Shown here: one piece after another, positions 9,601 to 34,684 of the stretch
Layout of the letters: each line of letters opens with the position of its first letter
Position numbering within the stretch: position 1 is the first letter of the stretch
From: Halorubrum sp. Hd13
Lineage (GTDB): Archaea; Halobacteriota; Halobacteria; Halobacteriales; Haloferacaceae
DNA length: 37,780 nucleotides
Assembly: GCF_002252755.1 (NCBI RefSeq)
Contig: NZ_NHOY01000015.1
Location: 1 to 37,780, forward strand
Direction: 5' to 3'
Program-made: the position numbers and the translations under genes
Notes under the pieces: model-generated
The model's database searches: none
What the model was told of the DNA's origin: nothing
The model's input: only the letters and a program-made list of their open reading frames with translations

Positions 9601-12600
9601 CTCGACCCTGCGGATCGCGTTGATGTAACACGATCCCGGGAACCTCACGAACAAAACTTCCCTCCGTGACGAACCAGCCCATCAGTTCAAGCCAGTCGTC
9701 CATGTTGAAGGAGAGGGGCATTTCAGCGTGTCCGCGATCGTATTTAAGAAGGGTCTCGTCGGCGTGTTCCTCGATCTGTTCGCGGTTCTGTCGATACACC
9801 TCGATCGGTATCAGATATTTTCCGGCTTTTCCATCAACCGTCGCGAGTCGAGATGTTCCCTTCGCCCGATCGAGTTCAGACTCGATTCCCACGGGCATCG
9901 CTGCTCGGAATCCGGTCAAGCCGTCGTGAGCGTACACGGCGACGTGGCCGTCTTCGACCTCCTCGAAAAGGTCGAACTTCTCGCGTTTCGATCCGGCCAT
10001 CGGTTCGTGTATGGGGAATGCGAACCGCTCGTATTCCGGCACATCACGGTATTCGCTGAACTCGAAATCCGACGGGCCGAGATCGCTCCATCCGCGGCTC
10101 TGTGACAGGAGGAACCGGTGATTCTCCGTCACTTTAAAATCGTGCGTGTTCCCGCTGACGTGGTGTAGCTCGCCGTATTCGTTTTGGTACGAATGAGTCT
10201 CGGCGACTGGCTTGATTTCGCACTCAAACGTTTCTGAATTCAACGTGTAGACGGGATCGCCGACATTCAGTTCTGTTATCGGCTTGAGCCCGTTCGGCGT
10301 TGCGACGTCCGTGTCGGCGCTGAAACACTTCAGGTCCTGGACCGTCACCATCTCCTTGACGCCGGTGATCGGGTCGAAGACGGCGCCGCCCTCGAACTCC
10401 TCCGACTCCTGTTGGCCCTTCGTCGGGAGCGCGAACTTCCCGAACGCCTTGTGGAGGACGTACATGTCGACCGTGTCGCCGGGGGTCGGCGCGTCCTCGA
10501 TCTTGCAGCCGACGAAGGTGCGCACCTCGTCCCAGAAGGCGATCACGTCCTGCTTCCGGTCGATCTCGACGCACAGCTCCACGTCGCGGATGCTGTACTC
10601 CAGCAGGCGCTCGGGGTCCTGCTCCCAGAGGTCGCCGATGTCGCCCGTGTAGCGCTCCTTCCCGACGCCGAGTTCGCGCTCGCCGACCGCGTCGAGGCGG
10701 TACGACTCCAGCTCGGTGAACATCGTGCGCTTGTAGGCGTACAGCAGGTCGAAGACGACCCGGCCCTTGATGTCGGGGCCGCCCCAGCCGGAGCGCCACA
10801 CCTCCCCGATCCGGGAGAATCGATCCACCGAGAGATCATACTCGCTTCCCGGGTCAAGCTCTTCCATCCGGTCGAAAAAGTACGGGACGTCGAAGTCCTC
10901 ACAGTTGTGAACGAGGCAATCGTCTGCGAAGAAATTGTGCGTGGTCGTCTCGATGTCGTAGGTCGTCTCCGTACCGACACGCTCCACGTCCTCAACCTTC
11001 ACAAACACGTACTCCGGCCACTCGTCGAGAATCGTTTCGTGCCGTTTGAGATCGATTCCTCGGCGGTGTTTGTCCCGACCGATCCGCTTCTCGTCAGTGC
11101 CGGTGTCCGCCTCAAAGAGCGCGTACGGAATGTTCTCGCTCCGTCCACTTTTCCCGCCGTCCAGTGCTTTTAGCGCCTCTCGCTTTTTCGAGTGAGAGAG
11201 ATGCGGGAGGACCCGATCCCTGAGTCGCTGGATCTCACGCTCTGCGTCCGGGACCCGCACCACGTTCTCACGCTGCTCTGCGTAGACGCCAAGCCGGCGG
11301 AATAGCTTCACGTACCATTCCCCGATGGATCGATTTTCGGCCGCAACGGTCACCGAAGACGAGACGTTCCCGTCCCCGTCGATGACTCCTGCCAAGAACC
11401 GTTCTATATACGACTCTGGAAGTTCGAAAACCGTCGAGAGATCGACTTCTCCCCCGTTTTTGTCACCGAACGGAATCCCGAGCCCATTGAACGTGTACAT
11501 CCGGGCGTAGTCCAGTACGTTCTGCTTGTAGCATCCCTTCCCATCGGGTTCGAGATGCGTCTCACCGGGGAACTGTTCGTGTAACTCCTCGCGCGTGTTA
11601 TAGAAACGGATTCCATCCTCGGGCGACATGGTCCCGTCCGTGAGAACCAGTCCCGCGAGATACAGCTCGTGGCCGGTGAGCTGCCTGTCGAGGTCGTTCC
11701 GCGTGCGGCGGTACTCCCTCCCGCCGTCAGGGAGCGCAACGTCGTATCGGTCAGACACAACTTGACATCGCTCCGGAGTCCAAACATCTGTCTTCGAGTG
11801 ATGTAAGGTTCCTGTGGCGAGATCGAACTCCTCTGCGAGCTCCGAAACGGCGCCGTAAGGAAGTTCAGATTTGAACGATTTGATCGCCTCTTTACTTCCG
11901 AACCGCTGGCATTCGATCGGGACGAGATCACTGAGGGTCGGGACACGCTCCGAGTCGACATTCAATTTTCGCGGCTTGAGGAGATAGTCCCCGACATCGA
12001 TCTCGCTTCCCAGCTTCCAGTCGACTTGATCATCGTCACCGACCATCACACGATGCTCCTCTGAACTGCGGAGATCAGTTCCATCCGCGAGCCTGTATCT
12101 GAGAATCTCTTTCTCGCTCTCCCACTTGTTCGTGACCTCCGCGGTCGTTGTCTGCCGTTCGTCGCTCCCTATCACCTCGTCTCCGACAGACACGTCCTCG
12201 ATCCGTTGCTCGGTCCCGTCCGCTTTGAGAATTTGACTATCCGCCGGTAGACAGTTCCACCCAGTAAAAAGATCTGGGTCGGTGTCGTCGATGTAGTCGA
12301 CGAACGCGTCGAGCATCGCGGCCTCCTCCTCGAACGTCTCGACCCTGAAATCGACCTCCTCGCCGTCGCTCGCGATCCCTTCGTAGTCGGGGAGGTCCTC
12401 GGGCGGCGGGATCTCGGCCTCGGGGGCGTCGTACAGCCAGACGACGTACTCGTCGTCGTAGGAGTCGTGGCTCGTGAGACAGATGATCGGCTCCTCGCCG
12501 TCCTCGGGGAACCCCCGGCGGTCGTCGACCTCGATGTCGAAGGTGTTCACGCGGAGGTCGGCGTCGACCTCGGCCGGCTCCAGCTGCCCCTCGTGGACCT

Positions 12601-22256: not shown

Positions 22257-23177
22257 TTACTCTCGGGTCGCGCGGAACGACCGCACCGCGTCGCGGTACC
22301 CCTCGCGGAAGGTCGGATAGTCGAACTCGTACCCGAGCGCGCGGAGCCTGTCGTTCGAACAGCGCTTGCTCGTCCGGATCCGGCGTTCGGCGGCCGCTGA
22401 GAGGTCGCCGGCCGCGATCCGCTCGGCCTTCGACCGCTTCTCCGGCCGCGGCACGCCGCACTCGTCGGCGAGCCAGTCGGCGAACGCGTGCTTGTCGACC
22501 GGTTCGTCGTCGACGACCACGACCGGCTCGCCGCGTGCGCGATCCGTCTCGAGGAGGTGCCGGATCGCCCCCGCGGCGTCGTCTCGATGGACCATGTTGA
22601 GGTACCCCGCGGTGACGGGCCCTTCGACGTACCGCTCCAATCGGTACCGCCCGGGGCCGTACAGTCCCGCGAACCGAGCGACGGTCCCGCCGATCCCGGC
22701 GTCGCCGGCGGCCTCCAGCGCGATCCGTTCCGCCTCGGCGAGGACCCGCGTCTTCTCCGTGGTCGGATCGATCGGCGTCTCCTCGTCGACCCACCCGCCG
22801 TCATGGTCGCCGTACACGCCCGTCGACGACGTGTAGACGAGTCTGTCCGGCGACGACGACCGCGCCGCGTACTCCTCGATGACGTTTCGGAGGCCGTCGA
22901 CGTACACCTCGCGGGCCGCCTCGGCGCCTCGGCCGCCGGAGCTGGCCGCGAAGACGACGGCGTCCGCGTCGGGCAACGCGTCGAGCGAGGGCGGATCGGT
23001 CGCGTCCGCTCGTATCGCGTCGACCGCGCCGTCGCCGTCGACGCGTTCCCCGACCTCACCGATGGCGTCGATCCCCGCGTCAGACCGCCGCACGCCCGTC
23101 ACGGCGTGGCCGCGATCGGCGAGCTGCGACGCGAGTTCGATCCCGACGTAGCCGCAGCCGACGACGACGGCCCTCAT
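22257..23177 (-). CDS. SDR-like NAD(P)-binding protein (epimerase/dehydratase superfamily)
   Basis: A 306-residue Rossmann protein of the extended SDR type. The dinucleotide-binding motif GCGYVG is at 7-12, and the strand-4/5 region is AVVFAAS and LVYTSSTGVYG (113-123). The usual catalytic YxxxK is not seen: the expected site reads PTTEK (138-142), with Pro where Tyr would be, so it may be a YeeZ-like atypical SDR with a different activity or none. The start overlaps the stop of the DUF5791-like gene (ATGA), so the two are co-translated. No substrate can be assigned. Confidence 0.85.
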   Translation of the reverse strand: MRAVVVGCGYVGIELASQLADRGHAVTGVRRSDAGIDAIGEVGERVDGDGAVDAIRADATDPPSLDALPDADAVVFAASSGGRGAEAAREVYVDGLRNVIEEYAARSSSPDRLVYTSSTGVYGDHDGGWVDEETPIDPTTEKTRVLAEAERIALEAAGDAGIGGTVARFAGLYGPGRYRLERYVEGPVTAGYLNMVHRDDAAGAIRHLLETDRARGEPVVVVDDEPVDKHAFADWLADECGVPRPEKRSKAERIAAGDLSAAAERRIRTSKRCSNDRLRALGYEFDYPTFREGYRDAVRSFRATRE

Positions 23178-23653
23178 CGCTTGCGGCGCTCGATGACCGC
23201 CATGACCTCCGCGAGCTGTTCCAGCGTCATCCCGGCGCGTCCCTCGAGGGCCTGTTGGACCTCTTGGCCGGTGAGATCGGCGTCGATCCCCGCCGCGACG
23301 GTGTCGACGTCGAGCACCGCGGTCGCCATCCCCATCAGGAGGTGATCGCGTAGCTCCGCGACGAGCGCGTCGGCGTCGCGGTCGGCGGTCACGGCGACGA
23401 TCGCCGCCGCGTCGTCCACGCTGAGGTCCGCCGCGTCGCCCGCGGCGGCCGCCTCGACGGCCGCCTCGTCGACGCCGGTCTCGACGCCGACGCGCTCGCG
23501 CCCGGCCTCGGCCACCGACTCGCGCACCATCACCTCGAACGCCGCGAGCAGCGCGCCCGGGGTCACCTCGCCCGCGTCGACATCGGGCGTCCCGTTGGCG
23601 CCGACGGCGTCGACACCGGACACCGTCCCGTCCTCGACGACCTCGTGAAACAT
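23174..23653 (-). CDS. DUF5791-like haloarchaeal protein
   Basis: A 159-residue acidic, Ala/Val-rich, helical protein (LLAAFEVMVRESVAEAGRER; then MTLEQLAEVMAVIERRKR at the end) that fits a haloarchaeal family I recall as DUF5791, of unknown function. There is no membrane segment. It is the first gene of a two-gene operon with the SDR-like gene, overlapping it by four bases. A TATA box is 27 bp upstream of the ATG. Confidence 0.75.
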   Translation of the reverse strand: MFHEVVEDGTVSGVDAVGANGTPDVDAGEVTPGALLAAFEVMVRESVAEAGRERVGVETGVDEAAVEAAAAGDAADLSVDDAAAIVAVTADRDADALVAELRDHLLMGMATAVLDVDTVAAGIDADLTGQEVQQALEGRAGMTLEQLAEVMAVIERRKR

Positions 23654-23695: not shown

Positions 23696-26600
23696 TCACG
23701 AGGTCGCGCACTCTCTCGCTCCTCCGTCCGACGCTCCCCCGGCTCTCGGGCAGGGCCACCCGGCGGAGGTCTCGTCGCGGGTGCCGTCGACGTCGCCGAC
23801 GCCGGGCGGGCCGGCGGGCACCGCGACGGCGACGACGGTCTCCGTCTCGAACCGAATCGGCTCCGTCGCACCGAGCCGAACGGTCTCCCCGCCAACGTCG
23901 AGGGCCACGTTGTCCTCCCGTCGAACGTACTCGAACGGCTCGCCTGGCGTGCCGACGTCGGCGCGCAGCGCGAACCGCGGGTACTCCCCGCGGACCTGCA
24001 CGCGCCAGGCGTTCACCGTCGTCACCCAGTAACCGGGCACCGGCGCGACCGGAAGCCCCGCCCCGACGCTCCGGGCGGGCTTCAGCGACCACTTCTCGCC
24101 GAGGTCCTCGGCCGCCCTCTCGCTCAGCTCCTCGGTCGCGGTCCGGCCGGCGCGCGTGGCCTCCCTCTCGATCGCTTTCTCCATGCGGTCCCTGAGCAGG
24201 ACCCGCGCGCCCTTCGTCGGCGGTTCGACGACCCGCGTCGGCACCCGAACGTCCTCTCGACCTGCCGCCTTCCGCGTCGCGACGCGGAGGTGCGCGGCCA
24301 GCGACGCCTCCGCCGCGGTCGAGAGCGATCCGTCGGCCGCGGCCTCTGCGGCGACCCGCTCGGCGTACTCGCCGTCACCGACCGCGGCCGCTCTGTCACC
24401 GGTCGAGTCGTATGACGCGGCGGCCTCGTCGACCGCGTCGCGACGCGCCTCCCGCGACAACGAGGTCCGCTCCCGAAGCACGCCCTCAACTTCGCGATCG
24501 ACTTCGCGAAGCGAGCCGTCGACCCGTTTCGTGAGCGCGTCCCGGTCGGCGCGGAGTCCCGGGTCGTCGCTCGCGGCCAGCGCCTCGTCGGCGAGCAGGA
24601 GCGCGCGCCCGGCGGTACCGAGTCGGACCGTGTCCCCGGCGCCGAGGATCCGATCCACGATCCCGCTCGACAGATCGCCGTACGGAACGGTGACGTAGTT
24701 CACGTTGCGGACGGCGAGCGGTCGCGTCGGGGCGTCGCTCGCGCCGTCTGTCCGTTCGCCGTCGACCGTCGTCCGCGGCAGGTATCCCGGCGCCCCTCGC
24801 GGCGAGAACGTCACCGCTCCCCCGGGACCGTCGCCGGCGACCGTGTATGTGCCCGGGTCCGTCGCGGCCTCGCGGGCGGCGATCGCCTCGCCGACCGAGG
24901 GGCCGCCGAAGGCGCTGTTCACCCGATCGAGAAACCCGTCCGTCGCCCGCTCGCGGTCGGCAGAAGCCGCTTCCAGCTCCGCGACGACGGCGTCGACGTA
25001 CGCCGCGCGGGCGGCGACCCGCGCCCGATCGACCGCGCCGTCGTACGTCTTCGGCGCGTCGACGAGCGCCGCTCGGCGATCGCGGACCGCGTCGGCGAGG
25101 TCGGCGTACGGCTCCGCCTTGCCGACCGCCGCCGCCTCCATCGACGCGTCGGTCTCGAACGCCCGGACTTCGACGGCGAGCGCGGCGACATCCGCCGCCA
25201 CGCGGTCCCGTTCGGTCTCCGTCCACGAGCCGTGGACCACCGTCGAGTCGTCGACGTCTCCGCTCCGGACGGCGTCCCGGGCCAGTCGGTCCACGCCGGC
25301 CGCCGTGTCGACGCCGAGCGACGAACGCGCGGCCGCCGGCGTCCCGCGTAGGTCGGGTCCGTCACCTCCCGCTCCGAACGTCGCGGCGGGCCGGTCCGCC
25401 GCGCCGTCGGTCGGCGCGTGTCGCCCCGTCACCGAGACGCGGACCCGGTAGCGGTCGGCCGCTTCGTCGGCGGTGGTCGTCCGATGGACGGTGCGGTCGA
25501 CGACGCTTCCGTTAGGGCCCCGTTCCACGACTTCCCGTTCCCACGTCGCAGTCGCGGTGCGTTCGACCGTCACCTCGCGGATCGCGTCTCCGAACGCGAC
25601 CGGCTCGTCCGGATCCACGGTCCTCGCGGGAACCCCGCGCGGCACGTCGCTCCCGGCGACGTCGGTCAGCCGCTCCGACCGCTCCACGTCGACGCGATCC
25701 CACTCGCCGGTCGCCGCGACGGCCGGCGTCGGCGGCGCGATTCGTCCGCCGTCCGCGATCTGCGTCGTCGCCGTCCGCACGTCGGCCTCGACTCGGTACG
25801 CGCCCTCGATCACCTCGTCGAGGTCGTCGTGGACCCGAACCGCCCCGACGTCCGCCGCGTGCCCGATCGGAACCGGCGTCTCCTCGTCGGACCGGTCTCG
25901 TTTCGACTCGAATGCGTCGTCCTCGCTCCCCGCCCCGTTCGGGTGCGTGCCGGCGCTCGGTTGCGTCGCGGTCTCCCCGGAACCGGTCGGCGTCGGCGCT
26001 CCGAGAACCGCGTCGGTCCACGAGTCCTCTCGAACGCCGGTCGGCGCGAGGAGGTCGCTCATCCCGGTCCGGGCGGTCGCCCGTGCCACTCCGCCGCGGG
26101 CGCTCGGGTCGCTCGTCCCGAAGACTGCCCGCTGCGTCCGGACGATCCCGGCGTTCGTCGACAGTTCCACGTGCCGGTTCGCGAGGACGTTCTCGACCGG
26201 CGCCCCGGCGTACTGCGCGTATCCTCTCGCCCACGTCATCGGATAGAGGCTCGCGGTGAGCTGTCGACCGAGACCCGGTCCCTCAACCGGACCCCTGTCG
26301 AGCCGCTCTTCGAACCGCTCCGTCCGCTCGTGAGCGGCGAGCGTCGGGACGGCCACCACGACGGTCCTGTCCGCGGTGCGGTTCACGACCGTTCGGCCGT
26401 TCCGTGTCGCGGTGATGTCGACCTCCTCGAAAGTGACGCGAGTCGCGGTCCCGTTGGCCGCCGGCTCGACGCGGACGCGGTCGCGGGCCGCGGTGAGGTC
26501 CTCTCGCCCCCCGACCGCCGGTAGCGACGCCGTCGCCGTCACCGATCCGACGTCAGCGTCGACCGCGGAGAGCGCGTCTGCCCCGGTGACTGCCAGTCGT

Positions 26601-26944
26601 ATCCGAAGCGCGTCCGTGAACGCCGACTCCTCGCGCACCGCCTCGGCCGCGGCACCGCTCTCGGGCGCCCGCGTCACCGGTTCCCGCGCCGCGTCGTGCG
26701 CCGCCTCGCGCGCCGCGGCGCGCAGCGCTGCGGTGGCGTCGGCGTCGACGCGCTCGACGGCCCGCTCGACGCTCCGGTCCTCGCCGACGAGCCCCTGATC
26801 CGCGATCCCCGCTGCGTACGTCGTGCTCGTCACGAGCAGCAACACGCCGATCAGGGCGAACGGGACTCGCGCCCGCTCGTCGACCGCGAACCGTCGCCCG
26901 ACCCGCTCGGAGTCGGATGCTCCGCCGCGTTTCCCCACGCTCAC
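23696..26944 (-). CDS. Very large single-anchor surface protein (DUF7286-like)
   Basis: A 1082-residue protein, the largest of the pilus-like locus. A cytoplasmic basic N-terminus is followed by one membrane helix (FALIGVLLLVTSTTYAAG, about residues 29-46), and the remaining ~1000 residues should be outside the cell. They are rich in Ala, Asp, Arg, Thr and Val, with no cysteine evident. The arrangement recalls haloarchaeal DUF7286 proteins and, loosely, bacterial TadG-type assembly proteins; the comparison is structural inference. Two GTG codons (26947, 26944) could start it; GTG at 26944 makes a GTGA overlap with the previous stop and is preferred. The last gene of the locus. Confidence 0.8.
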   Translation of the reverse strand: MSVGKRGGASDSERVGRRFAVDERARVPFALIGVLLLVTSTTYAAGIADQGLVGEDRSVERAVERVDADATAALRAAAREAAHDAAREPVTRAPESGAAAEAVREESAFTDALRIRLAVTGADALSAVDADVGSVTATASLPAVGGREDLTAARDRVRVEPAANGTATRVTFEEVDITATRNGRTVVNRTADRTVVVAVPTLAAHERTERFEERLDRGPVEGPGLGRQLTASLYPMTWARGYAQYAGAPVENVLANRHVELSTNAGIVRTQRAVFGTSDPSARGGVARATARTGMSDLLAPTGVREDSWTDAVLGAPTPTGSGETATQPSAGTHPNGAGSEDDAFESKRDRSDEETPVPIGHAADVGAVRVHDDLDEVIEGAYRVEADVRTATTQIADGGRIAPPTPAVAATGEWDRVDVERSERLTDVAGSDVPRGVPARTVDPDEPVAFGDAIREVTVERTATATWEREVVERGPNGSVVDRTVHRTTTADEAADRYRVRVSVTGRHAPTDGAADRPAATFGAGGDGPDLRGTPAAARSSLGVDTAAGVDRLARDAVRSGDVDDSTVVHGSWTETERDRVAADVAALAVEVRAFETDASMEAAAVGKAEPYADLADAVRDRRAALVDAPKTYDGAVDRARVAARAAYVDAVVAELEAASADRERATDGFLDRVNSAFGGPSVGEAIAAREAATDPGTYTVAGDGPGGAVTFSPRGAPGYLPRTTVDGERTDGASDAPTRPLAVRNVNYVTVPYGDLSSGIVDRILGAGDTVRLGTAGRALLLADEALAASDDPGLRADRDALTKRVDGSLREVDREVEGVLRERTSLSREARRDAVDEAAASYDSTGDRAAAVGDGEYAERVAAEAAADGSLSTAAEASLAAHLRVATRKAAGREDVRVPTRVVEPPTKGARVLLRDRMEKAIEREATRAGRTATEELSERAAEDLGEKWSLKPARSVGAGLPVAPVPGYWVTTVNAWRVQVRGEYPRFALRADVGTPGEPFEYVRREDNVALDVGGETVRLGATEPIRFETETVVAVAVPAGPPGVGDVDGTRDETSAGWPCPRAGGASDGGARECATS

Positions 26945-27645
26945 CACCTCCTCACGACGATCCGAACGGGATCGTCCGTCTCGGCCGCGTCCGGCGTCGG
27001 CTGCGTGACCACCGCCGTCGTGACGTCGGCGTTCCGCGGCGGCTCGGCCCCGACGACGACCGCTATCGCGTTCCCGTCTCTCCCGGGGCGAGGCCGCTCG
27101 GTTCCCCTCGAACCGCCGTCGGTCCGGTCCGGACCCTCCCGGGACTGGCCGGCGGTTCGCTGAGGGGATCGCGGCGCGTTCGGTGTCCCAGACGCCGCTA
27201 TCCGGCCGGTTGCGGGTCGACAGCCACGCGGAGCCGGAGGCCGACGGTCGACGGCTCGCTGCGTCGAGTTGGGTTCCCGGCTCGGAACCGCCGGGACCGT
27301 CGCGTCGACCCGGGTTCGCTCGCCGAGGCCCGCGGCGATCGCGGCCGTCGCTCGCGGCTCGAACGCGCCCTCGCCGTCGACGGCGCCGCGCTCATCGCCC
27401 GCGCTTCCGGGAGCCGCGACGAGCAGCGCGAGCAGTTCGGCGCGCGTCGCGTGTACCGTTCGGGTGCCGTTCGCCGCCCGCGGCGACCGGTACCGCACGG
27501 TCACGGTCTCCGTCACTATCCGGTCGGCCGCCCCCTCCGCGGTCGGCCCGCGCGTCCCCGCGTCCCCGCCGACGCCACCGAGCGCGACGACGCTCGCGGA
27601 CACGCACAGGAGCAGCACCGTCACGTCGAGCACGGTGCTCGTCAC
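26941..27645 (-). CDS. Membrane-anchored protein of the pilus-like locus (DUF7284-like)
   Basis: A 234-residue protein with an N-terminal hydrophobic helix (VLDVTVLLLCVSASVVALGG, residues 5-24) that may be a signal anchor, then a Gly/Ala/Arg/Pro-rich extracytoplasmic region. Recognisable segments include RIVTETVTVRYRSPR, HATRAELLALLVAA, and near the end NADVTTAVVTQPTPDAAETD. It matches haloarchaeal proteins I recall as DUF7284 that sit beside type IV filament ATPases. The GTG start at 27645 overlaps the previous stop (GTGA), and its own stop overlaps the next start the same way. Confidence 0.75.
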   Translation of the reverse strand: MTSTVLDVTVLLLCVSASVVALGGVGGDAGTRGPTAEGAADRIVTETVTVRYRSPRAANGTRTVHATRAELLALLVAAPGSAGDERGAVDGEGAFEPRATAAIAAGLGERTRVDATVPAVPSREPNSTQRAVDRRPPAPRGCRPATGRIAASGTPNAPRSPQRTAGQSREGPDRTDGGSRGTERPRPGRDGNAIAVVVGAEPPRNADVTTAVVTQPTPDAAETDDPVRIVVRRW

Positions 27646-28082
27646 CGGCGGACCACCACGCGAAGGGTCCCGCGGACGTTCCGCCCCGGACCGACTCGCA
27701 CGGTCACCGGTCGCTCGGCCGTCCCGATCGCTCCGTCGTCTCCGACCGCCGCGCGTTCGGGCGCGTCATCGCCGAACTCGATCCGCCACGTCTTCCCGCC
27801 GGCCCTCACCGTCACCGCCGTCGGATACCGGAAGCCGTCGGCGCCGCGGAGCTGGTCCGGTTCGACGACGCCGCCGGCGGTCGCCGTTCGCTCGGCCCTG
27901 TCGAGGACGGTCTCGGCACCGGGCCGCTCCCGATCGACCGTCGCGTCGTCGAGCGCGGCCGCGTACAGACTCAGCGCCGCCCCGACTACCAGCACCGCGA
28001 CGAGCGCGGCGAGCGGTTCGACCGCGGCGCGATCCGCGGCCCCGCTTCCGGCGCCGGACGGGTCACCCGACGAGCGTGACAT
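27642..28082 (-). CDS. Candidate pilin-like protein (DUF7285-like)
   Basis: A 146-residue protein. After a 19-residue Ser/Gly-rich leader comes DRAAVEPLAALVAVL and a ~22-residue hydrophobic helix, then DD and a beta-rich domain. R18-A19-A20-V21 fits the archaeal prepilin peptidase pattern (charged residue, Gly/Ala, then hydrophobics), and the mature start AVEPLAAL resembles the xVxPxxxx start of haloarchaeal pilins, with Pro at +4. This supports a pilin or pseudopilin role but is inference. The start at 28082 lies 20 nt inside the previous gene; the frame runs upstream to 28247 only as a shadow. Confidence 0.75.
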   Translation of the reverse strand: MSRSSGDPSGAGSGAADRAAVEPLAALVAVLVVGAALSLYAAALDDATVDRERPGAETVLDRAERTATAGGVVEPDQLRGADGFRYPTAVTVRAGGKTWRIEFGDDAPERAAVGDDGAIGTAERPVTVRVGPGRNVRGTLRVVVRR

Positions 28083-28548
28083 GCACCCCTCCGTAATGCA
28101 CCCGCCGCACGGTGAGCCGCTCCGGCGCCGGTCGCCACCCGCTGTCGGCGCTCCGCGCGCGCTCCGCCGCCGCGGCCAGCGCGTCGGGGTCGTCGAACGC
28201 GGCGTCCGGCGGAACGCCGTCGAGGACCCGCCGAAGCCGGTCCCCACTTCCGCTTCGATCGACCGGTGGGACCGGCGTCACCCGCGGCGCGTGGAGCGGC
28301 GCCCGTGCGTCTCCCCCGTCTCCGCCGAGCGAGACCGACCGCGGCGTGAGTCGGATTCGGTCCGCCGCGATCCCGTGTTCCGCCGTCGCGGGGTACTCTC
28401 CGCCGGCTACCGTCTCGATCGTGTGCGCGACGCCGGCCGCGTCCGGCGGCGGCGACGCCGGGAGCGTCGCGGCGACGCCGGCCGTCGCGACGCTCACCAC
28501 GGCGAGGCCGAGCCACGCGTACGTCGCGTCGAGGTGAGTCTCGAACAC
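28063..28548 (-). CDS. Membrane-anchored protein of the pilus-like locus (DUF7283-like)
   Basis: A 161-residue protein with an N-terminal membrane helix (AWLGLAVVSVATAGVAATL, about 11-29) and an extracytoplasmic domain. PPPDAAGVAHTIETVAGGEY follows the helix, and the protein ends WRPAPERLTVRRVHYGGVHV then TLVG. This fits haloarchaeal DUF7283. The start is GTG at 28548, placed 27 bp after an excellent TATA box, so it should be the first gene of a four-gene unit (with 28082, 27645 and 26944). It overlaps the next gene by 20 nt. Confidence 0.78.
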   Translation of the reverse strand: MFETHLDATYAWLGLAVVSVATAGVAATLPASPPPDAAGVAHTIETVAGGEYPATAEHGIAADRIRLTPRSVSLGGDGGDARAPLHAPRVTPVPPVDRSGSGDRLRRVLDGVPPDAAFDDPDALAAAAERARSADSGWRPAPERLTVRRVHYGGVHVTLVG

Positions 28549-28570
28549 GGGCCGGCTGGCCGCGGCTTGG

Positions 28571-28578
28571 TATTTAAA
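28571..28578 (-). promoter_or_regulatory. Promoter of the four anchored-protein genes
   Basis: The palindromic element ATTTAAAT within TATTTAAATG is centred 27 bp before the GTG at 28548. It stands in the 64-bp gap between the platform gene and the DUF7283-like gene, so these genes can be expressed apart from the ATPase. Confidence 0.7.
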
Positions 28579-28612
28579 TGATCGGCGAGGACACGCGGCT
28601 GCGGTCCGGTCG

Positions 28613-30427
28613 TTACAGCAGCGCTCCCGCGCCCGCGAACGCGACGAGGTACGTCGCCGTCGCAGTCGGCAGCGCGATCCCCACGCGGTAGGCCACCAGC
28701 GTCCGGTCGAAGCCGCGCTCCAGCCCGGTCGCCAGCGCGGTGAGCAGCGCCGCGAGGATCAGCACGTAGGCGCCGACGATCCGGCCGAGTACCGGGACGG
28801 AGAGCGCTCCGGCGCCGGATTCCGCGGTCGCCTCGGCCGCGCTCCCGCCGCCGGCACCAGTACCGCCGCCCCCGACACCGAGCGCGTCCGCGCCGGCGGT
28901 CGCTCCGGCGCCCAGTCCCCCGGCGTCGACGGCGTCGACCCCCGTGGCGAGCGCGACCGTCGCGCCGCCGACGAGCGGCGCGAACACCGCCGCGGTGTTC
29001 GTCAGCGTGCCCGTCACGGTCGCGAGCTGACGTCGCGCGTCGGTTTCGAGCGCCCGGAGCTCCTCGAGCTGGTCGGCGAGCTCGAGGAGCACGTCGCCGG
29101 CCGGGCGACCCTCCCTGGCGGCGACGGCGAGCAGCGCGACCGCGCCCCGGACCCGCGGCGACGGGACCGGAACCGCGGGGCCGCCCCGGCCGAGGAACGC
29201 CTCCCGCACGCCGACTCGGAGGGTCTCGCTTCGGCGCCCGGCGCGCTCGAACAGCTCGCCGGTCGCCCCGTCGAGCCGCTCGCCGGCGTTCGCGATCGCC
29301 CTCTCGACCGCGACGCCCTCGGCCACGTCGCCGCCGATGACCGTCATGGCGTCCGGGAGCCCCCGTTCGACGGCCCGGATCTCAGCGAGCGCGGCCCGCC
29401 GGCGTCGCACGCCGACGAGGAGCGCCGTCCCCGCCCCGACGCCGACCCCGGCCACGGGTGCGGCCCACCCGGTGACTAGCCGCGCGGCGATCGCGGCCGC
29501 GGCGACTCCGGCGGCCGCGCCTGCCGCGGCGGCGTGTTGCGCCCGCTCGGGGACGTCCGGGTGGTCGCCGTCGATCGACGGCGGCGCGAACGCGACCGGT
29601 CTGCGCGAGAGCAGCCACGCCGACGCGGCGAACAGTCCGGCGGGGAGCACGACGAGGTAGAGTCCGGCGACGACCCTCGACCCGACCGGAACGCCGGACG
29701 CGGCCGCCGCGGGTAGCAGAGCTATCAGGGCCAGCGGGAGGAGCACGCCGAAGGCGTACAGCGCCGAGACGGGGCCGCGGACCTTGCCGACGAACGCCGC
29801 GAGCCGGTCGGTCGTCCCGGAGATCGTCGCGTCGAGCGCGCGGTCCAGACACCGTCCCCGCCGCTCTGCCGGCGCTGACGCGGCCGTCCGCACTAACGCG
29901 GCGGCGCGGTCGATCGCGGGGAACCACGGTCGCCACTCGCGGGCGAACGCCCGGAGCCCGCTCGTCGGCCCGTCCGCGCTCCCGCGCTCGTGACGCGCCA
30001 GCCCGTCCGCGAGCGGTCCGTCCCCGGTGCGGGCGGCGAACCGAACCGCGCGTTCCGCCGACGGGTCCAGTCGCATCCGTAACACGAGACGGCCGACGAG
30101 ACCGGGGGCCGCACCGAGCGCTCGAGTCCGACGGAGCGCGGCGAGCCCCACCGGTGCTCGATGGACCGCGTGAGTCGCCGCCAACCCTCCGGCGAGCCCA
30201 GCGAGCGCACCCGGAACCGGGCCGACGAACGCCGAGAGCGCGACGGCACAGAGGAGGCCGACCCCGAGCCCGACCCGATACCCGAGCTCGACGACTCGTT
30301 CGGCCGAGGCCTCCCAGCCGAGGAACGCGACCGCGCGCCGGAGCTCTGCCGACTCGTTCGCGTCGACCCCCTCGCTCGGGGGTGCCGTCGGCGAGCCGTC
30401 GGTCGCCTCGTCGACCGCTCCGGTCAT
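28613..30427 (-). CDS. TadC/PilC-like membrane platform protein
   Basis: A 604-residue inner-membrane protein with about nine predicted hydrophobic segments: near 52-70, 71-88, 220-243, 251-273, 300-340 (two), 475-497, 547-570 and 580-603. Two soluble helical blocks, about 92-215 and 341-470, sit where the two T2SSF (GspF/TadC) domains occur. The second contains ERGLPDAMTVIGGDVAEGVA, close to the archaeal TadC signature. A Gly-rich low-complexity loop at 503-540 lies between membrane segments. It overlaps the ATPase stop by ATGA, so platform and ATPase are co-expressed. It should anchor filament assembly. Confidence 0.88.
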   Translation of the reverse strand: MTGAVDEATDGSPTAPPSEGVDANESAELRRAVAFLGWEASAERVVELGYRVGLGVGLLCAVALSAFVGPVPGALAGLAGGLAATHAVHRAPVGLAALRRTRALGAAPGLVGRLVLRMRLDPSAERAVRFAARTGDGPLADGLARHERGSADGPTSGLRAFAREWRPWFPAIDRAAALVRTAASAPAERRGRCLDRALDATISGTTDRLAAFVGKVRGPVSALYAFGVLLPLALIALLPAAAASGVPVGSRVVAGLYLVVLPAGLFAASAWLLSRRPVAFAPPSIDGDHPDVPERAQHAAAAGAAAGVAAAAIAARLVTGWAAPVAGVGVGAGTALLVGVRRRRAALAEIRAVERGLPDAMTVIGGDVAEGVAVERAIANAGERLDGATGELFERAGRRSETLRVGVREAFLGRGGPAVPVPSPRVRGAVALLAVAAREGRPAGDVLLELADQLEELRALETDARRQLATVTGTLTNTAAVFAPLVGGATVALATGVDAVDAGGLGAGATAGADALGVGGGGTGAGGGSAAEATAESGAGALSVPVLGRIVGAYVLILAALLTALATGLERGFDRTLVAYRVGIALPTATATYLVAFAGAGALL

Positions 30428-32349
30428 TCGATCTCACCGCTCGCGCCGACGGAGTCGACGTACCGCTCCGGCTCCGTCCGACCGGTGGCGACCGCCTCGC
30501 GGATCCGCTCGCCCCGTCCCCCGACGGCCGCCCTGATCGACGCGTACGTCTCGTCGGGTCCCGCGAGACGATCGAGGAGTCGGCTCTCGCCGCGGTCGAC
30601 CCGCCCGGTCGGCGTCAGTCCCTCGTCCGTGCGCTCGAACAGCGATTCGAACGCGGCGCCGTCCTCGTGACCGACTACCTCGGCGATCACGTCGACGCGG
30701 TGGTCGTCGAGGAGAACGATCAGGTCGGTCGCCGCGAACGACGAGGGCGACACGCCGAGGTCGGAGACCACCCGCTCCCGGACGGCGGCGGGGTCCTCCC
30801 CGTGGATCGTCCCGAGCACCGTCTCGCCGGCCGCGCCGACGCGCATCGCCTCGTAGAGGGCCTGCGCCTCCTCGCCGCGGACCTCCCCCACGACGATCGC
30901 ACCGCCGCCGAGCCGGAGCGCGGTCCGGACCGCGTCGCTCGGCGACGGCTCCGCCCCGTCGCCGACGCAGAGCCGCTGCGCGTCTCGCCCGGCGGTCGCT
31001 AGGGCGCTCGTCGGGAGCTCGGGCGTGTCCTCTATCAGTATCGACCGCGACTCCGCGGGAAGATCCCAGAGGAGGGCACCGAGCGCGGTCGTCTTTCCCG
31101 CACCCCGCCCGCCGGCCACGAGCCCCGTCACGCCCCGCTCGACGGCGACGGAGAGGAGCCCGGCGGCCGCCGGCGTGAGCGTCCCTGCGTCGACGAGTCG
31201 TGCGAGCGTCCACGCGTCGGGATCACCGCGGCGGAACGCGAACGAGAGCCCGTCGCTGGCGGGGTCCGTCGTCGCGGCCACGCGGACCCGGCCGGCGTCC
31301 GTCTCCAGGGTCGCGTCGAGCGTGGGGCTCGCCCGAGAGAACCCCCGCCCGCTGGTCCGCCGGAGTCGGGACGCGAGCGTGGCGGCCCCCTCGGGCGGGA
31401 GTCGCACGTTCGTCCGGCAGCGCTCGCCGTCGACGACGACGCGGAGCGGGTTCTCGGTCACGGGCGCCGAGAGCGTCGCGTCGCTCACGCGCTCGTCGGC
31501 GAACACGTGTTCGAACGCCCCGTACCCGCGCGTGTGCCGCCGGAGCACATCGGTCAGCGTCGAGACGGGATCGCCGTCCTCGGCGGCCGTCCGGACCGCG
31601 CGGCCGGGCGCTCGCCCGCCCCCGGTCGGATCGTCGAGCAGCCGTCGCTTGGCGTCGTCGAGCCGCTCGACGGCCCCGTCGTCGAGCTCTCGAACCGGCG
31701 GCGTGAGGTGGTACGTCCGGAGCGGTCCCGACCCCTCGTACAGCCGGACGGTCGCGCCGGTGTCGAGATCCCAGCGGTCGGCGAGCGCGGCCCCCGGCGG
31801 CGGCGCGGTCGCGATCCGCGCCGCCGCGATTCGGGGCCCGGCGTGTGCCCGAAGCACGTCTCCGACCTCGTCTGCCCCTTCGACGATCGCCGACAGCCCG
31901 GTCTCCGCGGCGATCCGGGCCGGCGGTCCCTCGCGTCCGGCGGCCTCCCGAGCGGCGCTGACCGGATCGCGCAGCACGCGGTCGGCGAGCCGCGTCTCGT
32001 GGAACCCGACGCGCTCGCGGAACCGGCCCGCGGCGACGAGACACGCGGCGGCCCGCCCGGCGTAGGCCCGCTCGCGCCCGCGATGACGGGTCCTGATCAC
32101 CTCGGCGTCGCGCTCCGCGAGCGCCTCGATGACGGTCGCCAGACAGTCAGGGCTCTCGGCGAGGTCGCCGCGCCCCGGGCAGTCACCGGCGTCGACCGCC
32201 AGCACGACGCGGTCGCCGACGCCCGTTCCGACCGGCTCTCTGAACGTCGGCTCGCACCGGCAGTCGCGATCGGCGTCGCTCCACGGCAGCGATCGCAGCG
32301 AGGGCTCGCCGCCGCCGATCCGCGACAGCGAGGGGAGATCGAGGTTCAC
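30424..32349 (-). CDS. Type II/IV secretion ATPase (PilB/TadA/FlaI family)
   Basis: A 641-residue hexameric motor for a type IV filament system. Walker A is GGRGAGKTT (413-421), the Asp box is ILIEDTPELP (437-446), Walker B is GGAIVVGEVRGEE (482-494), and the His box is TIHGEDP (514-520). The N-terminal domain holds four cysteines (30, 32, 57, 69), two in CRC, which may bind a metal; the FlaI-type core starts near 265. A GTG start at 32349 lies 26 bp from a strong TATA box. It comes before the platform gene in the same unit, overlapping it by ATGA. Confidence 0.93.
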   Translation of the reverse strand: MNLDLPSLSRIGGGEPSLRSLPWSDADRDCRCEPTFREPVGTGVGDRVVLAVDAGDCPGRGDLAESPDCLATVIEALAERDAEVIRTRHRGRERAYAGRAAACLVAAGRFRERVGFHETRLADRVLRDPVSAAREAAGREGPPARIAAETGLSAIVEGADEVGDVLRAHAGPRIAAARIATAPPPGAALADRWDLDTGATVRLYEGSGPLRTYHLTPPVRELDDGAVERLDDAKRRLLDDPTGGGRAPGRAVRTAAEDGDPVSTLTDVLRRHTRGYGAFEHVFADERVSDATLSAPVTENPLRVVVDGERCRTNVRLPPEGAATLASRLRRTSGRGFSRASPTLDATLETDAGRVRVAATTDPASDGLSFAFRRGDPDAWTLARLVDAGTLTPAAAGLLSVAVERGVTGLVAGGRGAGKTTALGALLWDLPAESRSILIEDTPELPTSALATAGRDAQRLCVGDGAEPSPSDAVRTALRLGGGAIVVGEVRGEEAQALYEAMRVGAAGETVLGTIHGEDPAAVRERVVSDLGVSPSSFAATDLIVLLDDHRVDVIAEVVGHEDGAAFESLFERTDEGLTPTGRVDRGESRLLDRLAGPDETYASIRAAVGGRGERIREAVATGRTEPERYVDSVGASGEIE

Positions 32350-32371
32350 GGCGGGCGTGCTCCCGGCATCG

Positions 32372-32378
32372 TATATAA
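32372..32378 (-). promoter_or_regulatory. Promoter of the ATPase/platform genes
   Basis: The minus strand reads TTATATA, centred 26 bp before the GTG at 32349, in the 33-bp gap after the DUF7311-like gene. Confidence 0.7.
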
Positions 32379-32382
32379 GCGA

Positions 32383-32895
32383 TCACCCTACCCTGGTGAC
32401 CCGGACGGTCGGTCCGCCGTCGTCGACGAGCCGGAGGGCCAGTCGGCTCTCGCCGCCCGGTCGGAGCGCGATCGCGCCGCCGTCGACCGACACGGTCGCG
32501 TCCGTGCCGCCGGGACCGATCGGCGCGGTTCGTTCGGGCCCGCCGTCGATCCGATACCGGAGCGCGACGTCCGGGCCGGGTGACGTCTCCTCGGCGACGT
32601 TCGCCTCCGCGCCGACCGTCTCTCCGCTGGCCCCCGTTTCCACGATCGCGACGCGGTCGATCGGCGCCGCTCCGAACCCGCTCGGGACGCGGACGGTGAC
32701 GGTCGTCCGCGCGGCGAGCGACGGGTCCGCGACGCTCACGGAGCCCGCGACGAGGCCGCCGACGGCCCGCTCGACGCGGTCCGCCTCGGCGTCGATCCGC
32801 TCGGCGGTCGTGGTCGCCCGGGCGTCTTCCAGCGCCGGGGTCGCGGCCGCGAGGAGGGCGACGGCGACGAGGACCGTGAGGACGACGCGGATCAC
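32383..32895 (-). CDS. Anchored extracytoplasmic protein (DUF7311-like)
   Basis: A 170-residue protein. An N-terminal hydrophobic helix (VVLTVLVAVALLAAATPAL, about 4-22) is followed by a helical segment TTTAERIDAEADRVERAVGG and a beta-rich domain with TVRVPSGFGAAPIDRV and RLALRLVDDGGPTVRVTRVG at the end. A helix-then-beta layout after a membrane anchor is typical of pilin-like or minor-pilin folds; whether it is processed is unclear, as only MIR precedes the helix. It fits haloarchaeal DUF7311. The GTG start at 32895 follows the DUF7310-like gene by 60 bp. Confidence 0.75.
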   Translation of the reverse strand: MIRVVLTVLVAVALLAAATPALEDARATTTAERIDAEADRVERAVGGLVAGSVSVADPSLAARTTVTVRVPSGFGAAPIDRVAIVETGASGETVGAEANVAEETSPGPDVALRYRIDGGPERTAPIGPGGTDATVSVDGGAIALRPGGESRLALRLVDDGGPTVRVTRVG

Positions 32896-32955
32896 GGCTC
32901 GCCGGCCTCCGTCTCGACTCGCGCCGCGATCCCGGTTCCCGCTCCCCGGTCCAGC

Positions 32956-33528
32956 TTACAGGGACTCACGGAGCCGGTCCAGCGCCTCGTCCCGCCACGA
33001 TCCGTCCGCGTCGTCCGACCGCCTCGCGTCGCCCCGTCCCACCCCGCCGTTCCGATCGGCGGCGTCCGACGGGACGGCGGCGTCGAGGGCGTCCTCGCTC
33101 GGCACGGCGTCGGCGGTCGCGCCGCCGCTCTGGAGTCGGGTCTCCGTGCCGGCGTCCTCGCCGCGGCTCGCCCTCGCCAGCGCGAGGTCGGCCCGCCGCT
33201 CGACCTCGCGGTTGACCGCTCGAATCGATCCGACGTACCCCCGGATCGCCTGCGTGGCGGCCTCCAGCTCCTCGACGCGCGACTCGAGCTCCTCGACGCG
33301 CGACTCCAGCGCCTCGCGCTCCGCGGCCGCGGCGGCGCCGTCGCCGAGGTCCGCGACGGCCGCGTCGGACCCGGTCAGGGCTCGCTCGACCGCGCTGAGT
33401 CGCTCTCCGAGCCGGTCTCCGCTGCTTCCGTCGCTCGGTCCGCCGGCGCCAGCGGTCTCGTCGCCCTCGGCGGTCGGCCTCTCCCCGCGGCCCGACGTCC
33501 GACTTCTCTCGTCGGTGGCGTTCGACAT
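32956..33528 (-). CDS. Coiled-coil protein (DUF7310-like)
   Basis: A 190-residue soluble protein. The N-terminal third is Gly/Ser/Asp-rich, then comes a coiled coil with heptads ALESRVEELESRVEELEAAT (about 93-112), RAVNREVERRADLALARAS, a low-complexity linker and the tail SWRDEALDRLRESL. No membrane helix, so likely cytoplasmic. The heptads are coded by a 21-bp near-repeat (33265-33310). It fits haloarchaeal DUF7310 coiled-coil proteins, which adjoin DUF7311 and the filament ATPase. First gene of the locus, with a strong promoter 28 bp upstream, divergent from cetZ. Confidence 0.75.
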   Translation of the reverse strand: MSNATDERSRTSGRGERPTAEGDETAGAGGPSDGSSGDRLGERLSAVERALTGSDAAVADLGDGAAAAAEREALESRVEELESRVEELEAATQAIRGYVGSIRAVNREVERRADLALARASRGEDAGTETRLQSGGATADAVPSEDALDAAVPSDAADRNGGVGRGDARRSDDADGSWRDEALDRLRESL

Positions 33529-33552: not shown

Positions 33553-33560
33553 ATTTAAAT
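33553..33560 (-). promoter_or_regulatory. Promoter of the DUF7310-DUF7311-like genes
   Basis: The element ATTTAAAT, centred 28 bp before the ATG at 33528; the same octamer drives the DUF7283-like gene at 28571. Confidence 0.7.
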
Positions 33561-33604: not shown

Positions 33605-34684
33605 ATGAAGGCAGTCCTCCTCGGCGTCGGGCAGGCGGGCGGGAAGCTCACGACCGCCCTCGCGCAGTTCGACGCCGACGCCGGCTACGGCGCGGTGCTC
33701 GACGCGCTCGCGGTCAACACGGCCGCGACGGACCTCGACCCGCTCCCGCTCGACACGGTCCTCGTCGGGCAGTCGCGGGTGAACGGCCACGGCGTCGGCG
33801 GCGACAACGAGCTCGGCGCCGAGGTGATGGACGAGGACGCGGTCGAGGTGCTCGACGCGCTCGCGTCGAAGGTGACCGCGGAGGCCGAGGCGCTGTTCGT
33901 GGTCGCCGGGCTCGGCGGCGGCACCGGCTCCGGCGGCGCGCCGGTGCTCGTCCGGGAGCTGAGCCGGGTGTACGACGTGCCGGTGTACGCGGTCGGGATC
34001 CTCCCCGGTCGCGACGAGGGGGCTATGTACCAAGTGAACGCGGGCCGGTCGCTCAAGACGCTGGTCCGGGAGGCGGACGCGACGATCCTGCTCGACAACG
34101 ACGCGTGGCGCTCCTCGGGAGAGTCGATGGAGGGCGGTTTCGCGGCGATCAACGAGTCGATGGCGAGACGCGTCGGCCTCCTCCTGGCCGCCGGCGAGTC
34201 GGTCGAGGGCGTCGCCGAGTCGGTCGTCGACACCAGCGAGGTGATAAACACGCTGCGGGCCGGGGGGATGGCGGCGGTCGGGTTCGCCTCGGCGCCGGCG
34301 GCCGAGGACCCCGAGGAGAACGTCACGACCGTGATGAGCACCGTCAGGAGCGCGGTGATGACCGGGATGTCGCTCCCGAACGCGACCGAGGCCGACGCCG
34401 CCCTCGTCGCCGTCGCCGGCGACCCCGACCGCATCTCCCGGAAGGGCGCGGAGAAGGCCCGCAAGTGGCTGCAGGAGGAGACCGGCTCGATGCAGGTGCG
34501 GGGCGGCGACTTCCCGCTCGACTCCGACCGGATCGCGGCGCTCGTGCTGCTCGGCGGCGTCGAGCGCTCCCGCCGGGTCGAGGCGTTCCTCGAGCGCGCC
34601 CGACAGGCGGTCCGCGACGAGCCGGAGGCGGAGCCGGACCCCGCGGCGGCGTTCGACAACGACGAGCTCGACGACCTCCTCTGA
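33605..34684 (+). CDS. cetZ: CetZ-type tubulin/FtsZ-family GTPase
   Basis: A 359-residue tubulin-superfamily protein. The start [14 protein letters not shown], the T4 loop GLGGGTGSG (102-110) and the T7 region [14 protein letters not shown] (209-222) fit haloarchaeal CetZ rather than FtsZ (no NxDxADV). CetZ proteins polymerise with GTP at the membrane and in known cases control cell shape and motility. The C-terminal tail is acidic and ends NDELDDLL, possibly a partner-binding tip. Which CetZ subgroup this is cannot be told without a tree. Divergent from the pilus-like locus, with 76 bp between start codons. Confidence 0.93.

What the first reader, a model, noticed from the sequence alone, without database searches (positions are those of the whole stretch)
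23696..33528. Uncharacterised type IV filament/Tad-like machine in eight genes
A secretion ATPase and platform protein are joined to six haloarchaeal proteins of unknown function: one coiled coil and five with single N-terminal membrane helices. The order is DUF7310-DUF7311-ATPase-platform-DUF7283-DUF7285-DUF7284-DUF7286-like, all on one strand in under 10 kb with four-base overlaps. It resembles a bacterial Tad locus in logic (motor, platform, pilin-like subunits, large anchored protein), but no typical pilin or prepilin peptidase is present. It is the best candidate here for an undescribed surface system.
Basis: partly seen in the sequence, partly recalled or inferred. Interest (0 to 1): 0.65.

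Follow-up and report, generated by a model that had tools for sequence, protein, structure and literature searches.

The report
Known haloarchaeal PilB2 pilus, extra parts
The eight genes are the already catalogued but functionally untested PilB2/PilC2 type IV pilus locus of salt-loving archaea; new here is that two genes elsewhere in the genome, a pilin and a HerA-family (DNA-pump-type) ATPase, are inherited and lost together with it, which gives the pilus a probable subunit and raises a testable possibility that it moves DNA.

Summary
Observation confirmed: eight co-oriented genes, DUF7310-DUF7311-PilB2-PilC2-DUF7283-DUF7285-DUF7284-DUF7286, in a Halorubrum-like genome. The claim that the system is undescribed fails. 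It is the pilB2/C2 regulon beside cetZ2 (Makarova 2016 subclade 4F; Hbt. salinarum pil-2, Losensky 2015; Brown and Duggin 2023). I found no published mutant or filament for it. "No pilin" is also wrong: DUF7285, DUF7284 and DUF7286 orthologues mostly carry prepilin-type leaders, and the genome encodes PibD elsewhere. Tad membership is not supported.

New here: in 145 Halobacteria genomes every PilB2 genome (105) also has DUF7286 and an unlinked DUF7382 pilin, which 35 of 40 PilB2-less genomes lack. This pilin is probably Makarova's predicted major pilin. A HerA-family ATPase lies within 3 kb of the pilin in 92 of 103 genomes and heads the pilB2 operon in some Natrialbaceae. It occurs in 101/105 PilB2 genomes versus 2/40 others, and decays with the system. 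Adjacent CetZ2 does not follow this pattern (97/105 vs 27/40). I did not find the ATPase linked to this pilus in the papers searched.

Most likely: a type IV pilus for adhesion or cell contact with a second, soluble ATPase. A DNA-transport role is possible, unproven.

The parts
32956..33528 (-). DUF7310 protein, 190 aa, no membrane helix, coiled coil; probable cytoplasmic accessory protein (fits Makarova's coiled-coil arCOG07564 of subclade 4F; equation inferred)
   Evidence: PF23991 E 2e-29; no TM; orthologues at the same place
32383..32895 (-). DUF7311 protein, 170 aa, hydrophobic from residue 1; pilin-like minor subunit without a class III leader
   Evidence: PF23993 E 4e-38; found in 107/145 genomes; leader motif only 5/42; homologue beside the HerA-like ATPase and an A24 peptidase in a methanogen locus, L217, E 1.6e-5
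30424..32349 (-). PilB2 assembly ATPase, 641 aa, with a conserved N-terminal four-cysteine motif (C30, C32, C57, C69)
   Evidence: PF00437; alignment A3; tree
28613..30427 (-). PilC2 (TadC-like) membrane platform, 604 aa, 7 predicted helices by hydropathy
   Evidence: PF00482 weak; hydropathy; always next to PilB2
28063..28548 (-). DUF7283 protein, 161 aa, one N-terminal membrane helix, no class III leader
   Evidence: PF23954 E 6e-53; leader motif 2/43
27642..28082 (-). DUF7285 prepilin-like protein, 146 aa (DRA/AVEPLAALVAV; family consensus RGQTEPLAALVAV); model = long N-terminal helix plus four-strand sheet
   Evidence: PF23956; leader in 42/46 orthologues; alignment A2; model pLDDT 85
26941..27645 (-). 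DUF7284 prepilin-like protein, 234 aa; Halorubrum form short and without the leader that 32/50 orthologues have
   Evidence: PF23955; alignment A4
23696..26947 (-). DUF7286, 1083 aa, large exported protein with a prepilin-like N-terminus (DERA/RVPFALIGVLLL); likely tip, anchor or surface component
   Evidence: PF23957; leader in 48/56; AlphaFold2 pLDDT 77.9 with no PDB match better than E 0.3
33553..33560 (-). TATA-like box (ATTTAAAT) 25-32 bases before DUF7310
   Evidence: same kind of box in 18/31 orthologous loci
32372..32378 (-). TATA-like box (TTATATA) 23-29 bases before PilB2
   Evidence: 14/33 orthologous loci, against 1-2 at junctions without a box
28571..28579 (-). TATA-like box (ATTTAAATA) 23-31 bases before DUF7283; suggests the DUF7283-7285-7284-7286 set has its own promoter
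   Evidence: 31/39 orthologous loci
33605..34684 (+). CetZ2 tubulin-like GTPase, divergent neighbour; probably not an obligate part
   Evidence: best PDB match 4b45 (HvCetZ2) 511 bits vs 4b46 (CetZ1) 311; present in 97/105 PilB2+ and 27/40 PilB2- genomes
23174..23653 (-). DUF5791 protein, conserved downstream neighbour (position fits arCOG04674; inferred), not shown to be part of the machine
   Evidence: PF19104
22257..23177 (-). NAD-dependent epimerase/dehydratase-type gene, conserved downstream neighbour (position fits arCOG03095; inferred)
   Evidence: PMC9856176

Best explanation
This is the PilB2/PilC2 type IV pilus of a Halorubrum (Makarova subclade 4F). PilB2 powers and PilC2 anchors assembly of a filament. 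Its probable major subunit is a DUF7382 prepilin encoded elsewhere in the genome (contig C15 of this assembly), processed by PibD (contig C48). DUF7285, DUF7284 and DUF7286 are co-inherited prepilin-like subunits; by size DUF7286 is the likely tip, anchor or surface protein. DUF7311 and DUF7283 are membrane-anchored minor parts, and DUF7310 is a cytoplasmic coiled-coil helper. A soluble HerA-family ATPase encoded beside the pilin is a further, obligate or near-obligate partner. Most likely output: surface adhesion or cell-cell contact, with the HerA-like ATPase as the second, soluble ATPase that other archaeal filaments also tend to have (ArlH, MinD/FleN). SHOWN here: gene content and order, leader motifs, co-inheritance and co-decay, ATPase grouping. 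INFERRED: subunit roles, PibD processing, filament, adhesion.
For: Pfam assignments of the eight genes. Published descriptions of the same locus: PMC4858521, PMC4292770 pil-2 (seven ORFs co-transcribed, three FlaFind prepilins, pilB2 8.5-fold up in adherent cells), PMC9856176. ATPase tree: PilB2 joins methanogen, Archaeoglobi, Thermoplasmata and DPANN ATPases (97/93) apart from the five other T2SSE ATPases of its own genome. Co-inheritance in 145 genomes: PilB2 105; all 105 have DUF7286 and the DUF7382 pilin; 101 have the HerA-like ATPase; tallies and Fisher p about 1e-27 to 1e-28. All nine searched genomes whose PilB2 locus lacks an adjacent DUF7286 have DUF7286 elsewhere. Some Natrialbaceae loci read <pilin >HerA-like >DUF7310 >DUF7311 >PilB2 >PilC2. 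Class III-type leaders. PibD-like gene.
Against: No filament or phenotype has been reported for this locus in the papers searched. The window's own DUF7284 lacks the leader, and DUF7311 and DUF7283 lack it generally. No PDB fold match confirms pilin folds. Four PilB2 genomes, all of one genus, lack the HerA-like ATPase. Fisher values ignore shared ancestry. The equation of the pilin with arCOG02981 and of DUF7310 with arCOG07564 rests on description and position, since arCOG tables were not available here.
Confidence: 0.8

Rival explanations
1. DNA-transport machine: the PilB2 filament captures DNA or brings cells together and the HerA-like ATPase pumps the DNA, a haloarchaeal counterpart of the crenarchaeal Ups pili plus Ced system.
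For: The co-inherited ATPase is of the HerA family (DUF87 match over cut-off, invariant Walker A GKRGxGKS, Walker B DEAH and ATQRP motifs), a family of DNA translocases; weak NCBIfam similarity to CedD and CedB. In Sulfolobales a HerA/VirB4-like ATPase (CedB, CedD) works with a type IV pilus in DNA import (PMC11868833; PMC9905601). DNA uptake is reported in haloarchaea but its import machine is unknown (PMC3929857; PMC6759562).
Against: No CedA/ComEC-like channel or nuclease was found beside the genes; HerA-like matches to CedB/CedD are weak; deletion of pibD did not affect Haloferax mating (PMC7749143); HerA-family ATPases also serve other tasks.
Confidence: 0.2
2. Tad-like pilus (TadE/TadF/TadG logic): DUF7285 and DUF7284 as TadE/F, DUF7286 as TadG.
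For: ATPase resembles TadA/CpaF; DUF7285-DUF7284-DUF7286 is an ancient triad kept in methanogens; leader RGQTEPLAAL recalls Tad pseudopilins (memory, not tested).
Against: No TadE/TadF/TadG/Flp Pfam match for any of 46 DUF7285 or 21 DUF7284 sequences even at E 1; weak links go to other haloarchaeal DUF families instead; one platform gene; no fold match.
Confidence: 0.07
3. Protein secretion or S-layer remodelling machine: the large DUF7286 is an exported effector or surface-layer protein moved by PilB2C2 and not a pilus part.
For: DUF7286 is by far the largest product, conserved in all 105 PilB2 genomes, with an unknown fold; Makarova called a gene of this system S-layer-like.
Against: It has a prepilin-type N-terminus, and a dedicated pilin is co-inherited, which points to a filament.
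Confidence: 0.1

Closest known systems
Haloarchaeal pilB2/C2 regulon (H. volcanii, next to cetZ2; Brown and Duggin 2023, PMC9856176)
   Same: Same ATPase-platform core, several predicted pilins, one surface protein, divergent cetZ2, downstream epimerase and hypothetical gene.
   Different: That report names neither the unlinked DUF7382 pilin nor the HerA-like ATPase in the text read; here CetZ2 proves poorly co-inherited with PilB2.
Archaeal T4P subclade 4F (Makarova 2016, PMC4858521)
   Same: Cysteine-rich N-terminal ATPase domain, coiled-coil protein, S-layer-like protein, dedicated stand-alone PilA-family pilin, ftsZ-like neighbour, methanogen and DPANN members.
   Different: HerA is mentioned in the main text only for the ATPase superfamily, not as a component; supplementary tables could not be read.
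Hbt. salinarum pil-2 locus, OE1347R-OE1332R (Losensky 2015, PMC4292770)
   Same: pilB2-pilC2 plus downstream prepilin genes, restricted to haloarchaea.
   Different: There pilC2 has an in-frame stop (strain R1) and pilB2 an insertion (strain NRC-1); the window copy is intact and has DUF7310-DUF7311 in front.
Ups pili and Ced/Ted DNA import systems of Crenarchaeota (PMC11868833, PMC9905601)
   Same: A type IV pilus associated with HerA/VirB4-family ATPases.
   Different: No CedA-type channel found here; the HerA-like protein is short (about 350 aa), soluble and only weakly similar to CedB/CedD.
Bacterial Tad pilus
   Same: TadA/CpaF-type ATPase with TadC-type platform; small leader-bearing proteins and one large protein.
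   Different: No Flp, TadE, TadF, TadG, TadB or TadZ family match in the locus.

Membership tests
Archaeal T4P subclade 4F / pilB2C2 regulon | Assembly ATPase groups with methanogen and DPANN ATPases, apart from other haloarchaeal PilB and ArlI | tested here: met
   support 97/93; caution: long branches
Archaeal T4P subclade 4F / pilB2C2 regulon | Cysteine-rich N-terminal domain on the ATPase | tested here: met
   C30, C32, C57, C69 in at least 90% of 37 sequences
Archaeal T4P subclade 4F / pilB2C2 regulon | TadC-like platform next to the ATPase | tested here: met
Archaeal T4P subclade 4F / pilB2C2 regulon | Coiled-coil cytoplasmic protein and large surface protein in the locus | tested here: met
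   DUF7310 and DUF7286; arCOG identity not tested
Archaeal T4P subclade 4F / pilB2C2 regulon | Dedicated major pilin, usually encoded elsewhere | tested here: met
   DUF7382 prepilin in 105/105 PilB2 genomes; identity with arCOG02981 inferred
Archaeal T4P subclade 4F / pilB2C2 regulon | Filament on the cell surface | not testable with these tools
   needs microscopy of mutants
Type IV filament superfamily | Prepilin peptidase in the genome and class III leaders on subunits | tested here: met
   PibD-like gene on C48, PF06847 match just under the cut-off but DVRTRRLPN and GGADAK motifs present; leaders on DUF7285, DUF7286, many DUF7284 and the pilin
Bacterial Tad pilus | Flp, TadE, TadF, TadG or TadZ homologues | tested here: not met
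   no such Pfam match among the locus proteins or in the DUF7285 and DUF7284 families
Bacterial Tad pilus | Two platform genes (TadB and TadC) | tested here: not met
   one platform gene
Ced/Ups DNA exchange system | CedA-type membrane channel | not tested
   no family search for CedA was run; none of the locus proteins matches one
Ced/Ups DNA exchange system | CedB/CedD-type membrane-bound HerA/VirB4 ATPase | tested here: not met
   HerA-like protein is about 350-400 aa and far below the CedB and CedD cut-offs
HerA (DUF87) ATPases, for the unlinked partner | Family match over cut-off, Walker A/B and ATQRP motifs | tested here: met

The most novel reading that the evidence does not exclude
The PilB2 pilus plus its co-inherited HerA-family ATPase is a DNA-handling surface machine of haloarchaea and related methanogens (uptake or cell-to-cell transfer), an independent euryarchaeal counterpart of the crenarchaeal Ups/Ced pairing. 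The weaker form, that the HerA-like ATPase is an undescribed component of this pilus whatever its task, I hold at about 0.75.
Probability: 0.2. Interest if true: 0.85.

Novelty: already known. Interest (0 to 1): 0.48.

Why it matters
The locus sits in about 70% of sampled Halobacteria genomes, yet no mutant or filament for it was found in the papers searched. Linking an unlinked pilin and a HerA-family ATPase to it by joint inheritance and joint decay gives experimenters the missing filament subunit and a third target gene, and makes an open question (what moves DNA into haloarchaeal cells, and what PilB2 is for) directly testable in Haloferax volcanii. It also warns against assigning CetZ2 to the system on position alone.

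Tried and rejected
Undescribed system: rejected on literature. Tad pilus: no family or fold support. Novel fold as proof of function: DUF7286 and DUF7285 models gave no significant PDB match; the ribosomal-protein matches to DUF7285 (E 0.04) are noise. First AlphaFold job for DUF7286 failed and was rerun with fewer sequences. CetZ2 as an obligate part: rejected on co-occurrence. PilB2 'TGA inside' flags in several genomes: in the one traced (G036/L066) the match simply runs over the terminal stop, so not a pseudogene. Loci L079/L080 without PilB2: the genomes have PilB2C2 elsewhere. Halovenus-like loci without the DUF cassette: all have DUF7286 elsewhere. A first leader regex missed DUF7284 and the pilin because charged residues sit at +6/+7; rerun. 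DUF7311-like and DUF7283-like genes in methanogen cassettes L087-L092: position and look fit, but HMM support is absent or weak, so only DUF7285-DUF7284-DUF7286 is claimed there. Profile comparison of DUF7285 with the DUF7382 pilin: not significant.
Full report
WHAT IS THERE. Junctions differ from the description: two 4-base overlaps, one of 7, one of 20, and three gaps of 33-64 bases. TATA-like boxes stand 23-32 bases before DUF7310, PilB2 and DUF7283, and recur in 18/31, 14/33 and 31/39 orthologous loci, against 1-2 of 31-41 at the other junctions. This suggests that DUF7283-7285-7284-7286 can be transcribed as its own unit. The divergent gene at 33605-34684 is CetZ2. The closest named relatives are Halorubrum species (ATPase 80% identical in Halorubrum salipaludis).

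IT IS PUBLISHED. Makarova et al. 2016 (PMC4858521) describe subclade 4F: cysteine-rich ATPase, coiled-coil protein, S-layer-like protein, stand-alone PilA-family major pilin, ftsZ-like neighbour in Halobacteria. Losensky et al. 2015 (PMC4292770) found the Hbt. salinarum pil-2 locus co-transcribed over seven ORFs, with three predicted prepilins and pilB2 8.5-fold up in adherent cells. Brown and Duggin 2023 (PMC9856176) named the pilB2/C2 regulon beside cetZ2. I found no mutant phenotype or filament for it.

CONSERVATION. Of 72 named Halobacteria loci found through the ATPase, 53 hold all eight genes, and 51 of these are in the same order on one strand. In 145 Halobacteria genomes the PilB2 model matches 105 and DUF7286 matches 111: the same 105 plus six, most of which are remnants or contig-broken. 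DUF7311 matches 107. Where the operon is split, DUF7286 is elsewhere in the genome: nine of nine searched. DUF7286 also occurs in methanogens of the same phylum; three of those loci (L087-L089) keep DUF7285-DUF7284-DUF7286 in one block, away from their own PilB-PilC genes.

THE DUFS. Orthologues of DUF7285 (42/46), DUF7286 (48/56) and DUF7284 (32/50) have a [KR][GA] pair followed by a hydrophobic stretch at the N-terminus, the mark of class III (prepilin) leaders; DUF7311 (5/42) and DUF7283 (2/43) do not, and serve as internal controls. Starts were chosen by script, so single cases may be off. The window's DUF7284 is a short form without the leader. DUF7285 is modelled as a long helix plus a four-strand sheet (pLDDT 85); DUF7286 as a long mixed protein (pLDDT 77.9). 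Neither has a significant PDB match. No TadE/F/G or Flp match appears.

TWO UNLINKED PARTNERS. Beside PilB2-PilC2 in methanogens, an Archaeoglobi contig and several Natrialbaceae lies a small protein with the leader D[ED]RA/IEGLPIRLVIALVVGV and an Ig-like region (DUF7382). In this genome it is on contig C15 (L255). It occurs in 105/105 PilB2 genomes and in only 5 of 40 others. This fits the dedicated, usually stand-alone major pilin that Makarova predicted (arCOG02981; equation inferred).

Divergent from that pilin, within 3 kb in 92 of 103 genomes, is a HerA-family ATPase (DUF87). It occurs in 101/105 PilB2 genomes, the four exceptions being one genus, and in 2 of 40 others. One of those two carries stops (G125); the other (G121) has its DUF7286 and DUF7311 at contig ends, so PilB2 may be missing from the assembly only. 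G056 has remnants of DUF7286, pilin and ATPase. In 13 genomes the ATPase is within 4.5 kb of PilB2, and in Natrialbaceae such as L226, L078 and L085 it stands directly before the pilB2 gene set. In the methanogen loci L217 and L219 it is beside PilB-PilC, in L217 with an A24 prepilin peptidase. CetZ2, the immediate neighbour, is a useful control: 97/105 against 27/40. Fisher p values are about 1e-27 to 1e-28 for DUF7286, pilin and ATPase and 4e-4 for CetZ2; shared ancestry makes them too small, but PilB2 is absent from members of several families, so losses are repeated.

ATPASE IDENTITY. In a tree of 45 secretion ATPases PilB2 joins methanogen, Archaeoglobi, Thermoplasmata and DPANN sequences (97/93) and is apart from the other five of its own genome. 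Its N-terminal cysteines are conserved. Both agree with subclade 4F.

HOW IT MOST LIKELY WORKS. PibD trims the pilin and the leader-bearing DUFs; PilB2 and PilC2 stack the pilin into a filament; DUF7285, DUF7284 and DUF7286 prime, anchor or cap it; DUF7310 acts in the cytoplasm; the HerA-like ATPase is a second soluble motor or regulator. Archaella have ArlH, and other archaeal pili are expected to use MinD/FleN ATPases, so a second ATPase would not be odd. Adhesion or cell contact is the most likely output, supported only by the expression data of Losensky. DNA transport is the exciting alternative, since HerA-family enzymes translocate DNA and Sulfolobales pair a pilus with HerA/VirB4-like ATPases; nothing here shows it, and mating in Haloferax does not need pibD.

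VERDICT. Locus: already known, function untested. New: joint inheritance with the pilin confirmed on a larger set, and a HerA-like ATPase that I did not find linked to this pilus in the papers read (Makarova main text searched; supplements not readable).

Noticed in passing
L255 (window genome, contig C15, pilin about 11196-11648 -, ATPase about 11850-12902 +): Divergent pair of DUF7382 prepilin and HerA-family ATPase, unlinked to the window but co-inherited with its pilB2 locus.
   Followed up: yes
window 28571-28579, 32372-32378, 33553-33560: TATA-like boxes inside and before the gene set, conserved in many relatives, suggesting three promoters.
   Followed up: partly
L228 (G125) about 8460-9980, and G125:C1:2000809-2002359: Decaying system: DUF7310 beside CetZ2, remnants of DUF7311 and DUF7286 side by side, HerA-like gene with two stops, pilin still intact.
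   Followed up: partly
L095 1-4384: Methanogen-phylum contig with three tandem pairs of a DUF7286 C-terminal domain protein and a roughly 200 aa exported protein; the DUF7286 C-terminal domain seems mobile.
   Followed up: no
L074 (G045): DUF7285-DUF7284-DUF7286 kept next to CetZ2 in a genome without PilB2; either a relic or use of another assembly ATPase.
   Followed up: no
L087-L089, L092 and L217: Methanogens carry DUF7311- and DUF7283-like small membrane proteins before DUF7285, too diverged for the Pfam models; L217 has an A24 prepilin peptidase overlapping the HerA-like gene end.
   Followed up: partly
window 26941-27645: DUF7284 of Halorubrum is short, has a low-complexity insert, lacks the prepilin leader and matches only the first 164 of 278 profile positions.
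   Followed up: partly
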